Shown here piece after piece: positions 6,877 to 11,558 of a stretch of 64,000 nucleotides of DNA. Within the stretch, counting starts at the first letter, position 1. Every line of letters begins with the position of its first letter. Source of the DNA: Chlorobaculum limnaeum (GTDB taxonomy: Bacteria; Bacteroidota; Chlorobiia; Chlorobiales; Chlorobiaceae); assembly GCF_001747405.1 (NCBI RefSeq), contig NZ_CP017305.1, positions 1,940,001-2,004,000 of the forward strand. The letters are read 5' to 3'. The position numbers and the translations under genes are program-made. The notes under the pieces are model-generated. The model did no database searches. It saw only the letters and a list, made by a program, of their open reading frames with translations, and was not told the origin of the DNA.

Positions 6877-7305
6877 ATGAAACAGTCGATACTTGTCCTC
6901 TGCACCGGCAACTCCTGCCGGAGCCAGATGGCCGAAGGGTTCCTGCGCTCCTTCGACCCCGAACTCGAAGTATTCTCCGCAGGCACCATCCCTGCTGGCG
7001 AAGTTCATCCGCTGGCGGTTCAGGTGATGAGGGAGGCCGGTATCGATATTTCGGCAAACCGGCCAAAAAGCGTTGACGAATTTCTCTCCAGGCCGTTCGA
7101 TTATGTCGTGACAGTCTGCGACGGCGCGAACGAGTCCTGCCCGATGTTCAGCGGCGAGGTGAAACAGCGCCTGCACATCGGCTTCGACGATCCGGCAGGG
7201 GCCACCGGCAGCAGCGACGAGGTGCTCGAAGTCTTCCGCCGGGTGCGCGACGAGATCGAAGCTCGGTTCGGCGAATTTTATCGCGAAACCATTGCAGGAG
7301 TCTGA
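6877..7305 (+). CDS. arsC: arsenate reductase, thioredoxin-coupled, LMW phosphatase fold
   Basis: 142 residues. The P-loop CTGNSCRS has the nucleophile C9 and R15 (CX5R). C81 and C88 in [13 protein letters not shown] correspond to the Cys82/Cys89 relay of Staphylococcus aureus ArsC, so this is the thioredoxin-linked class that reduces As(V) to As(III). It has an extra Cys (C14) in the P-loop, absent from the second ArsC. The product As(III) would be exported by the permease encoded 2 bp downstream. Confidence 0.92.
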
Positions 7306-7307
7306 TC

Positions 7308-8363
7308 ATGAGTAACACGACAAAACAGCTCTCGTTCCTCGACCGCTACCTGACGCTCTGGATTTTCCTGGCGATGGGCGTCGGGGTGCTCTCCGGCTTT
7401 CTCTATCCGCAGATCGCCGGATTCTGGAACCGCTTCAACTCCGGCACGACGAACATTCCCATCGCCATCGGCCTCATCGTGATGATGTATCCGCCGCTCG
7501 CCAAGGTGAAGTACGAGGAGCTTGGCGACGTATTCCACAACACGAAGGTGCTGGGCCTGTCGCTCGTGCAGAACTGGGTGATAGGGCCGGTGCTCATGTT
7601 CGCGCTTGCCGTGCTGTTCCTTGCCGACATGCCACACTACATGGCGGGGCTGATCATGATCGGCCTGGCCCGCTGCATCGCGATGGTGATCGTCTGGAAC
7701 GAGCTGGCCAAGGGCGACACCGAGTACGCCGCTGGCCTCGTGGCCTTCAACTCGGTGTTTCAGGTGCTCTTCTTTTCGGTCTATGCCTGGGTGTTTCTGA
7801 CGGTACTGCCCGGCTGGCTCGGCTTGAGTTCGTTCCGCGTCGAGATCACCATCGCCGAAATCGCCTCGTCGGTCTTCATCTACCTCGGCATTCCCTTCAT
7901 CGCCGGATTCCTGACGCGCTTCGTCATGCTGCGGCTGAAGGGGCGCGAGTGGTACGAAACGGTTTTCGTGCCGCGCATCAGCCCGCTGACGCTGGTGGCG
8001 CTGCTCTTCACGATTGTGGTGATGTTCTCGCTCAAAGGTGAATACATTGTGAAAATTCCGATGGATGTGGTGCGTATCGCCATTCCGCTGCTACTTTATT
8101 TTGTCATCATGTTCCTCGTGTCGTTCTGGATGGGGCGCAAGATCGGCGCGGACTACTCTAAAACCGCCACGCTCTCCTTCACGGCGGCGAGCAACAACTT
8201 CGAGCTTGCCATCGCCGTGGCGGTCGCGGTCTTCGGCATCGACTCCGGCGAGGCCTTCGCCGCCGTCATCGGCCCGCTGGTGGAAGTGCCCGCGCTCATC
8301 GCGCTGGTGAACGTCGCGCTGTGGTTCAGGGAGAAGTGGTTCGGCGGCGTGAGCGAAGCCTGA
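7308..8363 (+). CDS. acr3: arsenite efflux permease, ACR3 family
   Basis: 351 residues, ten predicted membrane segments, the usual size of Acr3. Family motifs are [19 protein letters not shown] (about 121-139, with the essential Cys in the fourth segment) and [19 protein letters not shown] with the conserved Glu in the ninth segment. It catalyses proton-driven export of As(III) across the inner membrane. It starts 2 bp after arsC, so the two are almost certainly co-translated. Confidence 0.95.
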
Positions 8364-8410
8364 CAAGGCCTGAATGTTTGCTTCGAGTTCAAACAAAAAC
8401 CTGTACGAAG

Positions 8411-8848
8411 ATGGAAAAAAAACAACATGTGCTCTTTCTCTGCACCGGGAACTCGGCGCGGAGCCAGATGGCCGAAGGGCTGCTCAGGGAGATGGCTGGC
8501 GACCGGTTCGTCGCCATGAGCGCCGGGCTGGAACCAAGAGAGGAGGTGCATCCGCTCGCGGTTGAAGTGATGCGGGAGGTCGGCATCGACATCGCCTCGC
8601 AGAAACCCAAGCCGGTGGACCTCTACCTCGGCAGGGTTCCCGTGCACTATCTCATCGTTGTCTGCGACAAGGCCCAGGCAAGCTGCCCGAGAATCTGGCC
8701 GGGCCTTCTCGATGGACGCCGTTTTTTCTGGCCTTTGCCGGATCCGGCCGATCAGAGCGGCACCAGAGAGGAGCAGCTTGCCGGCTTCAGGGCGGTGCGC
8801 GATGAACTGCGCGGACAATTGCAGGAGTGGGTTAAAAGTGTCGAGTGA
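8411..8848 (+). CDS. arsC: second arsenate reductase (LMW phosphatase type)
   Basis: 145 residues. The P-loop is CTGNSARSQ (C11, R17) and the relay cysteines are C85 and C92 in VVCDKAQASCP. It shares the overall plan of the first ArsC but is clearly diverged, and it has Ala where the first copy has the additional P-loop Cys. The ATG at 8411 is preceded by a weak CGAAG. Two reductases in one cluster may differ in electron donor. A phosphotyrosine phosphatase role cannot be fully excluded, but both relay cysteines favour arsenate reduction. Confidence 0.9.
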   Translation: MEKKQHVLFLCTGNSARSQMAEGLLREMAGDRFVAMSAGLEPREEVHPLAVEVMREVGIDIASQKPKPVDLYLGRVPVHYLIVVCDKAQASCPRIWPGLLDGRRFFWPLPDPADQSGTREEQLAGFRAVRDELRGQLQEWVKSVE

Positions 8849-8892: not shown

Positions 8893-9108
8893 TCAACCTG
8901 CCCGTCTGCCGACCGCGAGGCTGTAAAATCCGGCAACGTGATTGGTTGTATCTTCGCATGAAACATCGGTTTGAGCGCTGTTGGCTTTCTGATTGACCAG
9001 CGCGAATCGTTGCAGAAACTGGTTCAGCGCCAGGCTGCCGCAATCGAACACTGATACGTCGTGTGTGGAGGCGAGCTTCTGAACCTGGCTGAAACGGGCA
9101 TCCGTCAA
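8893..9108 (-). pseudogene. truncated TacT-type GNAT toxin
   Basis: The 71-residue frame begins at a TTG and reads like the N-terminus of TacT/AtaT acetyltransferase toxins: FDCGSLALNQFLQRFALVNQ and KANSAQTDVSC, then GFYSLAVG, where it breaks off. The acetyl-CoA-binding half is missing, so no active toxin can be made. The TTG overlaps the stop of the preceding frame (TTGA), as is usual for the tacA-tacT pair. Confidence 0.75.
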
Positions 9109-9290
9109 TCGAGTACTCCCGGCTCGGTCAGCAAAGCTTTCATCCGACTGTCGGGAGCGGACACCGGCCAGTCGAGCAGCTTCAACCTTCCGCTCGTGGA
9201 CTTGTAAGGAAACTCTTTGGTGTACTCGAAGATATTCAGGATCATCACGTACACATCGCAGTAAACCGGAAGTTCATCATACAATGCCAT
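9105..9290 (-). pseudogene. chimeric relic: N-terminus of bAvd joined to C-terminus of a TacA (DUF1778) antitoxin
   Basis: The 61-residue frame begins MALYDELPVYCDVYVMILNI with FEYTKEF, which resembles the start of the four-helix-bundle protein Avd of diversity-generating retroelements. From about residue 33 it changes to KLLDWPVSAPDSRMKALLTE, which looks like the C-terminal end of DUF1778 antitoxins, followed by the overlapping TacT relic. A deletion has apparently fused two unrelated genes. Both assignments rest on motif memory and should be checked by profile search. Confidence 0.55.
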
Positions 9291-9304
9291 AACTCGTCAG
9301 CCTC

Positions 9305-9329
9305 AGCAGGGGGCTCCCCCCCCCCTGCT
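9305..9329 (-). repeat. G/C-run hairpin downstream of the variable-protein gene
   Basis: AGCAGGGGG and CCCCCTGCT form a perfect 9-bp stem with a 7-nt C-rich loop, 35 bp beyond the stop codon of the DUF1566-type gene. Retroelement target genes often carry such a hairpin or cruciform just after the variable region; it could also serve as a simple terminator. Confidence 0.6.
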
Positions 9330-9363
9330 CCTCCCCTCAATAAATTGATGTATAGATGAATGG

Positions 9364-9822
9364 TTAAAAAGCCCGCACCGGACGAACACGGAAATTGTCG
9401 CTGCCCTTGCTGAAGTAGGTCTGGCCGCCATCGACGAAGTACTGGAGCCACGCGTAGTGGGCACTGACCTCCGTTGAACTCCAGTAGCTGTCGTCGGCAA
9501 ACCCTCCAACGACCCATTTGTGCTTATACAGCTCACTCAACTCCCATTTGCTCGGTAAATACCAGTCTGAGTAACCATTATGAACAAACCGCCCACAAGC
9601 CTCTTTCGCCTGTTGCCAATCATAGTTGTTGCCCGGCAAATCTCTGGTCGCGGCAACGAGACCGTGCCGACCTGACTCATCGACGTTGAACACAACGCCC
9701 CCGGCATAACGCTGCCCGATTTCGACGGCTTCCGCCTGAGACGGACGGGCTACTGCCGATAATAAAGCGAACACGATGAACACGTGTCGCCAATCGATTA
9801 CTGATTTAAAAGTATAACGCAT
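9364..9822 (-). CDS. secreted DUF1566/Lcl-type C-type-lectin-fold protein, possible retroelement target
   Basis: 152 residues. A signal peptide is visible at 1-31 (hydrophobic VFIVFALLSAVARPSQA). The rest is a DUF1566-like domain: QRYAGGVVFNVDESGRHGLV, then DWQQAKEACGRFV, YSDWYLPSKWELSELY and the terminal WSSTEVSAHYAWLQYFVDGG followed by FRVRPVRAF. This C-terminal layout is that of proteins diversified by retroelements, where the last 100-130 bp are the variable region. A hairpin lies just downstream and an avd fragment further on, but no reverse transcriptase or template repeat is present. The function, presumably ligand binding outside the cell, is inferred. Confidence 0.75.
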   Translation of the reverse strand: MRYTFKSVIDWRHVFIVFALLSAVARPSQAEAVEIGQRYAGGVVFNVDESGRHGLVAATRDLPGNNYDWQQAKEACGRFVHNGYSDWYLPSKWELSELYKHKWVVGGFADDSYWSSTEVSAHYAWLQYFVDGGQTYFSKGSDNFRVRPVRAF

Positions 9823-9909: not shown

Positions 9910-11267
9910 GGTTCATCGTAAAATTTAATGGTAACGCTCGTCAGCAATTACGTCAACCGGTAATAGCCATGTTGAGCTTTCCACAGTAAAACAAAATCCT
10001 TATGCGGTAGCTGTGAAAGCTGTGGAACCCACGAGCCGATGCTTTGTACAACTGGATCTTGCTGTTCAGACCTTCGGAAACTGCGTTGGTCATTTCGTGC
10101 TCGAAATAGTTCAGGATGTTGTCGAGATGCCGCTTCAGCAGCTCTTTGACCTTGATCATGGGTTTCAACGCTAACTGGTCAACGCGTTCAGACCAGTAAT
10201 CGAAAAAGAAGCTTGCACTCTCTCGACAACCCAGCCGCCAGAACTCCCGAAACATGTTCTTCATCGACCAGGCTTTTCCGGTTTTCAGCTCACAGGCCAT
10301 CAATTGATCAAAGCTTGTCCGCTGGCTTTCCGTCATGTTCTCCGGATTGCGCAGCCAGGTGAATTTCGAGCCAATCAGAGTCCTGTCCCCTGCATGATGA
10401 AGTTGACGGGACTCTTGGCGACGAACCGTGTCGACCGCCTCGTTCAGATATTTGCTGATATGGAAACGGTCATGCACAATATCGGCCTGCGGCAGATGCT
10501 TTTTGGCAGCAATCGCGAAGGGTTTCCACATATCCATCGAGATCGATTTCACACCCTGGCGTTGCGATGCTTCAAAGCTGAGGAGTAGCGCTTCTGCTCC
10601 ATCGGTCGTTCGGCTCTGGACCACCTCAAGTACCCGGCCACCTTTCAGGTCGTTCAGGATCGTCACATACTGATGGCCTGCCCGGAAGCTCTTTTCATCA
10701 AGACCAAGATGAGCAATCGCCTCCTTATTCCGGCGGCTCAGGCCTCGCTTAACCGCACGGTTCATGATCTCGTTGGTTGCATGCCAGTTCAATCGCAAGA
10801 GCCTCGATGCCGACTGAATGCTTGAACACTCCTGAAGCAACTCGACAGCAAGCGCTTCAAACTTCAGGGTGTAGCGCGAATAGCGCGTTGCCCACGGAAC
10901 TTTAATTGTCTTGATCCTGTGCTCTTTGCACTCACACCGAGGCACCCTGGCTATCAGATGCGTCTCATACTCCATGGTATCCAGATGCCGCCACCGTTGT
11001 TCTGGCGCCAGGTCATAAATTCGTCCGGCCTTGCCGCATTCAGGGCATTCGACTTTGGGTCCGATATACTCCAGATGGATTTCTATCCGGGGGCCGGACA
11101 TCGACAGCCGGACATCCGACACCTTCCATGTTTCTGGTAATCCTAATAACTGCTGGTAATGGGCAATGAGGCTCGGCATACGTTGGGGTTAGTGTTTTGG
11201 CGTTCTTGGATAAATTACACCAAGCCACTCATTTTTACTACCAGCCCATTAAATTCTGCGAAGAGCC
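9910..11267 (-). mobile_element. ISL3-family insertion sequence (1358 bp)
   Basis: The right end, read inward, is GGCTCTTCGCAGAATTTAAT and the left end GGTTCATCGTAAAATTTAAT: imperfect 22-bp terminal inverted repeats (about 18 of 22 identical). The flanks are an exact 8-bp duplication, CTATTTCA, at 9902-9909 and 11268-11275. An 8-bp duplication and ends starting GGCTCTTCG are usual for ISL3. One intact transposase is inside. Confidence 0.93.
9953..11179 (-). CDS. ISL3-family transposase
   Basis: 408 residues, full length for the family. N-terminal zinc finger CPECGKAGRIYD near residues 47-58 and a second Cys pair in RVPRCECKEHRIK; an HTH region follows (SIQSASRLLRLNWHATNEIM). The DDE catalytic domain starts at IAHLGLDEKSFRAGHQYVTI, continues with SMDMWKPF and DIVHDRFHISKYLNEAVDTV, and ends with TNAVSEGLNSKIQLYKASAR, where the catalytic Glu is expected. 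No frameshift is seen, so the element may be active. Confidence 0.93.
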   Translation of the reverse strand: MPSLIAHYQQLLGLPETWKVSDVRLSMSGPRIEIHLEYIGPKVECPECGKAGRIYDLAPEQRWRHLDTMEYETHLIARVPRCECKEHRIKTIKVPWATRYSRYTLKFEALAVELLQECSSIQSASRLLRLNWHATNEIMNRAVKRGLSRRNKEAIAHLGLDEKSFRAGHQYVTILNDLKGGRVLEVVQSRTTDGAEALLLSFEASQRQGVKSISMDMWKPFAIAAKKHLPQADIVHDRFHISKYLNEAVDTVRRQESRQLHHAGDRTLIGSKFTWLRNPENMTESQRTSFDQLMACELKTGKAWSMKNMFREFWRLGCRESASFFFDYWSERVDQLALKPMIKVKELLKRHLDNILNYFEHEMTNAVSEGLNSKIQLYKASARGFHSFHSYRIRILFYCGKLNMAITG

Positions 11268-11558
11268 CTATTTCACAACGAACTCGACACTGGCTCCGTT
11301 TTTGCAAGAACCACGATCATCACCATCTATGTATATATTTGCAAGCGATCTATCACCGCTCCATCTCAAAGTAGCCTCTCCGTTCCCATTAGTATAAACG
11401 TTCTCTACCATTCCGCCCCATGAGATGTATCCTCCTATCTTAACACCGCTACGCGGCTCTCCACTTGGCCAGGTTGTCTTGACGTAACACTCACCTGCCT
11501 GTACAGCAGCAGGAAGGGCCATAGCGCTTAACAGAAAAAGTAATGTTGTTTTTTTCAT
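11268..11558 (-). CDS. small secreted protein of unknown function
   Basis: 96 residues. A signal peptide covers 1-21 (KKTTLLFLLSAMALPAAVQA). The mature part has a pair of Cys (C24, C84 in GSCKNGA) and short repeats of Gly and aromatic residues, suggesting a small beta-sheet domain (VKIGGYISWGGMVENVYTNG). The ISL3 element has inserted at the stop codon: the TAG lies inside the CTATTTCA duplication, so the protein is unchanged but its terminator is now separated. I recognise no family. Confidence 0.7.
   Translation of the reverse strand: MKKTTLLFLLSAMALPAAVQAGECYVKTTWPSGEPRSGVKIGGYISWGGMVENVYTNGNGEATLRWSGDRSLANIYIDGDDRGSCKNGASVEFVVK

What the first reader, a model, noticed from the sequence alone, without database searches (positions are those of the whole stretch)
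9105..9822. Remnant of a diversity-generating retroelement
A DUF1566/Lcl-type secreted protein with a C-type-lectin-like end, a perfect hairpin just after its stop, and an Avd-like N-terminus form the order expected for target gene, hairpin and avd. The reverse transcriptase and template repeat are missing. The variable region may thus be frozen at one sequence. DGRs are known in other green sulfur bacteria.
Basis: partly seen in the sequence, partly recalled or inferred. Interest (0 to 1): 0.68.

Follow-up and report, generated by a model that had tools for sequence, protein, structure and literature searches.

The report
Orphaned target of a lost retroelement
This is the fossil of a diversity-generating retroelement, a system that rewrites one end of a binding protein at random: the last-written protein gene, its hairpin signal and a stump of the helper gene remain, but the template and the reverse transcriptase are gone from the whole genome, so the protein is probably frozen at its last version.

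Summary
The 152-aa protein (9364-9822, minus) is an Lcl_C/DUF1566 protein whose last 148 bp (9363-9510) are a DGR variable repeat. Related genomes of the same family carry intact DGRs in the order target, GC hairpin, avd, template repeat, reverse transcriptase. The window is colinear with them through VR, hairpin and the first ~100 nt of avd (70-77% DNA identity). Against eight of their template repeats the window VR differs at 48-54% of template adenines but at 12-20% of other bases (Fisher p about 1e-6 for most). Third codon positions are ~70% conserved inside the VR and ~40% outside, at similar protein identity: a trace of copying from a template. The 61-aa ORF is a chimera: avd's first ~32 codons joined near 9193-9196 to the last ~28 codons of a TacA-type antitoxin, followed by a truncated GNAT toxin. 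The complete chromosome has no template repeat, no other avd and no DGR reverse transcriptase (only RT-Cas1 and AbiP2). Most likely a deletion from avd into tacA removed template and RT. DGRs in green sulfur bacteria and DUF1566 targets are known, so this is a decayed member of a known kind.

The parts
9364..9822 (-). target gene: 152-aa protein with a signal-peptide-like N-terminus and an Lcl_C/DUF1566 (C-type-lectin-like) domain
   Evidence: Pfam PF07603 E 7.9e-14; 8q4e E 1.1e-13; orthologues 56-61% identical
9363..9510 (-). variable repeat (VR), colinear with template repeats of intact DGRs in related genomes; ends in the VR-type sequence GTGCGGGCTTTTTAACCAT
9305..9329 (-). GC-rich hairpin (9-bp perfect stem, 7-nt loop) downstream of the VR, at the place of the DGR hairpin in relatives
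9196..9290 (-). avd stub: first ~32 codons of avd with an internal 6-nt deletion
9105..9193 (-). 3' end of a TacA1-type antitoxin gene, joined in frame to the avd stub; together they form the 61-aa chimera
8906..9108 (-). 5' ~67 codons of a GNAT toxin gene (truncated; intact homologues are 170 aa)
9910..11267 (-). complete ISL3-family insertion sequence 88 bp upstream of the target start codon, with 22-bp terminal inverted repeats and an 8-bp target duplication CTATTTCA

Best explanation
The locus is an orphaned DGR target. It once worked as DGRs do: RNA of a template repeat was reverse-transcribed with errors at adenines, and the cDNA replaced the end of the Lcl_C gene, guided by the shared 3' end and the hairpin behind the stop. 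That the VR was written this way is shown indirectly, from its adenine pattern and its conserved third codon positions. Loss of RT and template repeat from this genome is shown. Most likely (inferred, about 0.65) a complete target-hairpin-avd-TR-RT locus lay beside a tacA/GNAT toxin-antitoxin module, and one deletion from avd codon ~32 into tacA codon ~65 removed the rest of avd, the TR, the RT and the start of tacA. The target ORF stayed open, so the cell would now carry one fixed version of the exported binding protein. An IS inserted 88 bp upstream may have changed its expression (inferred).
For: Colinearity of VR, hairpin and avd with intact DGRs. Adenine bias against eight non-cognate TRs: 22-26 of 44-49 A sites differ against 12-20 of 96-101 other sites; five cognate pairs in relatives show 20-24 A sites against 2-3 others. 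Third-position identity to three lone orthologues is 69-73% in the VR and 39-42% outside, at protein identity 51-61% and 58-61%. No TR, no DGR RT and no second avd in a 99.98% complete single-contig genome. Junction avd/tacA. Parallel losses in relatives: avd fused in frame to a HigA-type antitoxin without TR or RT (L109); avd stub fused to the 3' half of RT (L101); avd cut at codon ~80 with transposase-like reading frames behind it (L106).
Against: The order of events is inferred from one genome. No trace of TR or RT remains between the avd stub and tacA. In the DGR loci read here no tacA/GNAT pair lies next to a DGR. The 7-nt hairpin loop is longer than the loops of relatives, so the hairpin may be decayed or different. 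Non-cognate TRs inflate the differences at non-adenine sites.
Confidence: 0.88

Rival explanations
1. Accessory target cassette: the piece never had its own TR and RT here. A target-hairpin-avd-stub unit, as found beside DGRs in relatives, was duplicated or transferred, and the DGR that served it from elsewhere was later lost or never entered this genome.
For: In four relatives an accessory target carries its own hairpin and an avd stub ending at the same place, reference position 206-208 (L097, L099, L108, L109). Lone targets with hairpin and decayed avd occur in L110 and L111. None of 21 genomes of the window's genus has a close DGR RT.
Against: The window stub ends elsewhere (about 30-40 nt earlier) and runs directly into an antitoxin gene, which fits a private deletion as well. 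No master DGR remains in the genome.
Confidence: 0.28
2. Ordinary Lcl_C/DUF1566 surface protein with no DGR history; the resemblance of its end to template repeats is shared ancestry of the domain.
For: DUF1566 proteins are widespread without DGRs. Any sequence compared with an AAC-rich template differs at its adenines, so the A bias alone is not proof.
Against: Non-adenine sites stay 80-88% identical to templates of another genus, third positions in the VR are conserved far beyond the rest of the gene, and the hairpin and avd start follow in the DGR order.
Confidence: 0.04
3. The target is still diversified in trans by a DGR on a phage or plasmid, or in other cells of the population.
For: VR, VR-type 3' end and a hairpin are intact enough to be recognised; action on remote targets is known for DGRs (PMC8144416).
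Against: No DGR RT or TR in the complete chromosome; one scan of viral contigs for the target protein found no relative; the hairpin loop is enlarged.
Confidence: 0.06

Closest known systems
DGRs with bAvd and Lcl_C/DUF1566 targets in the sister genus of the same family (L097-L100, L105, L107, L108)
   Same: Target with VR, hairpin and avd in the same order; avd stub up to 70-76% identical; VR-type end GTGCGGGCTTTTTAACCAT shared
   Different: Here avd is cut after ~32 codons, and TR and RT are absent
DGRs reported from green sulfur bacteria (Chlorobium phaeobacteroides DSM 266 with 2 VRs, Pelodictyon phaeoclathratiforme BU-1 with 4 VRs; PMC3521204)
   Same: Presumably the same family of elements, with multiple targets
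   Different: Those records have the RT; not compared by sequence here
BPP-1 DGR hairpin requirement (PMC3240598)
   Same: GC-rich 9-bp stem shortly behind the VR, inside the 7-10 bp range reported
   Different: Loop 7 nt instead of 4 nt; in BPP-1 enlarging the loop by 2 nt brought homing to near background
Legionella Lcl C-terminal domain (8q4e, PMC11162425)
   Same: Same DUF1566 domain, C-type-lectin-like fold by homology
   Different: No collagen-like region here

Membership tests
Diversity-generating retroelement (functional) | DGR-type reverse transcriptase ([I/V/L]GxxxSQ motif) | tested here: not met
   Own genome has only RT-Cas1 and AbiP2; no match to a related DGR RT at 1e-20
Diversity-generating retroelement (functional) | Template repeat resembling the VR and differing at adenines | tested here: not met
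   Own-genome DNA and pattern searches find only the VR itself
Diversity-generating retroelement (functional) | VR at the end of a C-type-lectin-like target with adenine-specific differences | tested here: met
   Against non-cognate TRs; third-position conservation
Diversity-generating retroelement (functional) | Accessory protein Avd | tested here: not met
   Only the first ~32 codons remain
Diversity-generating retroelement (functional) | GC hairpin just downstream of the VR | tested here: met
   9-bp stem, 7-nt loop; same place as in relatives
DGR remnant / orphan target | VR-bearing target with flanking DGR pieces, no RT or TR | tested here: met
Lcl_C / DUF1566 protein | Match above Pfam cut-off | tested here: met
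   52.4 bits against cut-off 34.9
TacA-GNAT toxin-antitoxin module (intact) | Complete antitoxin and toxin genes | tested here: not met
   Only the antitoxin 3' end and toxin 5' end remain
DGR activity in the present strain | VR heterogeneity among cells at template-adenine positions | not testable with these tools
   One genome per species held; no reads

The most novel reading that the evidence does not exclude
Orphaned DGR targets are a recurrent end-state in this family: the retroelement is used to find a binding specificity and is then deleted, sometimes by joining avd to a neighbouring antitoxin gene, which fixes the chosen lectin variant.
Probability: 0.15. Interest if true: 0.6.

Novelty: new member of a known kind. 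Interest (0 to 1): 0.34.

Why it matters
It is a clean fossil of targeted hypermutation in a complete genome. The last-written VR can be recognised without its template, and the junction suggests how the machinery was lost. Surveys that start from the reverse transcriptase miss such loci. The third-position signature used here could find orphaned VRs elsewhere and help ask whether cells keep the frozen variant under selection.

Tried and rejected
AlphaFold model of the target gave pLDDT 47 and was not used. The scan of genome contigs with the target returned only distant DUF1566 proteins, and viral contigs returned none. Pfam and NCBIfam do not recognise the 61-aa chimera or its 30-residue start; the Avd identity rests on relatives found, one full-length example of which matches bAvd PF22296 (E 5.5e-18) and NF033474 (E 2.1e-17, below its curated cut-off). 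Short own-genome hits to the VR (15-21 nt) were taken as chance by E-value and not inspected one by one. A TR/RT remnant inside the 64-kb window was sought with DGR proteins and DNA of relatives and not found.

Full report
What is there. On the minus strand, reading from 9822 downwards, the window holds a 152-aa protein gene (9364-9822), a GC hairpin (9305-9329) and a 61-aa ORF (9105-9290). The protein has a hydrophobic, signal-peptide-like start and an Lcl_C/DUF1566 domain (PF07603, E 7.9e-14), and it matches the solved Lcl C-terminal domain 8q4e (E 1.1e-13). [quoted passage not shown]

The window chromosome. The genome is held as one contig of 2,797,276 bases, 99.98% complete, with the window at 1,940,001-2,004,000. 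Only two reverse transcriptases pass Pfam PF00078: an RT-Cas1 fusion (P0001) and an AbiP2-type RT (P0002, PADLOC AbiP2 E 1.2e-184). Neither is a DGR RT. A related DGR RT finds nothing at E 1e-20 in this genome or in the 20 other genomes of its genus.

Intact relatives. Searching 61 genomes of the family with the first 30 residues of the chimera gave about ten matches of 72-76% identity (E 1e-10 to 6e-9), all outside the window's genus. They sit just downstream of Lcl_C targets and, in the complete loci, upstream of reverse transcriptases. Those taken out read target, hairpin, Avd of about 110-120 aa, adenine-rich template repeat, RT with GLPIGNLTSQ and YVDD. One such Avd matches bAvd PF22296 (E 5.5e-18) and NF033474 'diversity-generating retroelement protein Avd' (E 2.1e-17, 63 bits against a cut-off of 80).

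The variable repeat. The last 148 bp (9363-9510) align without gaps, apart from one extra codon, with template repeats of these DGRs. Against eight of them the window differs at 22-26 of 44-49 template adenines and at 12-20 of 96-101 other bases. Fisher p is about 1e-6 for five, 7e-5 for two and 8e-4 for one. Polarising on the window's own adenines gives no excess (p 0.93-0.96 for the two templates tried). Five cognate VR-TR pairs in relatives show the same pattern more sharply, since their template is the true one. The A bias alone is a weak argument, because the templates are AAC-rich and any homologue would differ there. The stronger evidence is at third codon positions. Compared with three lone orthologues in other genomes, third-position identity is 69-73% in the VR and 39-42% in the rest of the gene, while protein identity is 51-61% and 58-61%. 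That is expected if the VR is repeatedly overwritten from a conserved template and hard to explain otherwise. The VR-type end GTGCGGGCTTTTTAACCAT is shared with targets of intact DGRs, whereas most of their TRs read GTGCGGGGTTTTGAAC.

The hairpin. Relatives carry a GC hairpin at the same place, in most of the few examples folded with loops of 3-5 nt. The window has a perfect 9-bp stem but a 7-nt loop containing a run of G. In the BPP-1 phage DGR, enlarging the loop by 2 nt brought activity to near background (PMC3240598), so this hairpin may no longer work; that transfer between systems is an inference.

The chimera. DNA of the 61-aa ORF matches avd from its start codon to about 9196, with a 6-nt deletion, and from about 9193 matches the 3' end of a TacA1-type antitoxin gene (PF08681). 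Behind it lie 67 codons of the GNAT toxin that follows this antitoxin in congeners (77.6% identity, E 1.1e-30; intact pairs in L118-L120). So the 61-aa ORF is a fusion scar and the TA module is broken as well. The simplest account is one deletion from avd into tacA that took TR and RT. Relatives show similar losses: avd joined in frame to a HigA-type antitoxin with no TR or RT (L109), an avd stub joined to the last half of RT (L101), and avd cut short with transposase-like reading frames behind it (L106). These are draft assemblies and were not checked for misassembly.

Alternative route. In four relatives accessory targets carry their own hairpin and an avd stub ending at the same reference position (206-208). 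The window could be such a cassette, moved or left behind. Its stub ends at a different point, which favours but does not prove a private deletion.

Consequences. Template repeat, RT and working avd are absent, so the VR should be fixed unless a plasmid or phage supplies the machinery. The target ORF is still open. A complete ISL3-family element (9910-11267, 8-bp duplication CTATTTCA) sits 88 bp upstream of its start and may have altered expression.

Novelty. DGRs in Chlorobium and Pelodictyon, including multi-target ones, and DUF1566 as a common target domain are published (PMC3521204, PMC6642488). Two literature searches for Chlorobium DGRs and for orphan or degenerate DGR targets returned one paper each; the paper found by the orphan search (PMC4372165) was not opened. 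The element is a decayed member of a known kind.

Noticed in passing
window 9910-11267: Complete ISL3-family IS with 22-bp terminal inverted repeats and exact 8-bp target duplication CTATTTCA, directly between the target gene and a small secreted-protein gene (11268-11558) whose stop codon lies in the duplication.
   Followed up: partly
window 8321-8848 and 6877-7305: Two low-molecular-weight phosphatase/arsenate-reductase-like genes flank a membrane transporter gene (7308-8363); a congener has the same transporter and second reductase, but its stored sequence ends shortly after (L121).
   Followed up: no
L097 5768, L099 8652, L108 7605, L109 3963: Accessory DGR targets in four genomes carry a hairpin and an avd stub that ends at the same reference position (206-208), as if target-hairpin-avd-5' moves as one cassette.
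   Followed up: partly
L109 (avd fused to HigA), L101 (avd stub fused to RT 3' half): Other decayed DGRs in the family, one with avd joined in frame to an antitoxin after loss of TR and RT.
   Followed up: partly
L109 and L102: DGR targets in relatives are fused to a TIR-like domain and to a Ser/Thr-kinase-like domain, judged from the translated sequence only.
   Followed up: no
G000:C1:1046491 (L001) and G000:C1:2655134 (L002): The genome encodes an RT-Cas1 fusion and an AbiP2-type defence RT.
   Followed up: partly
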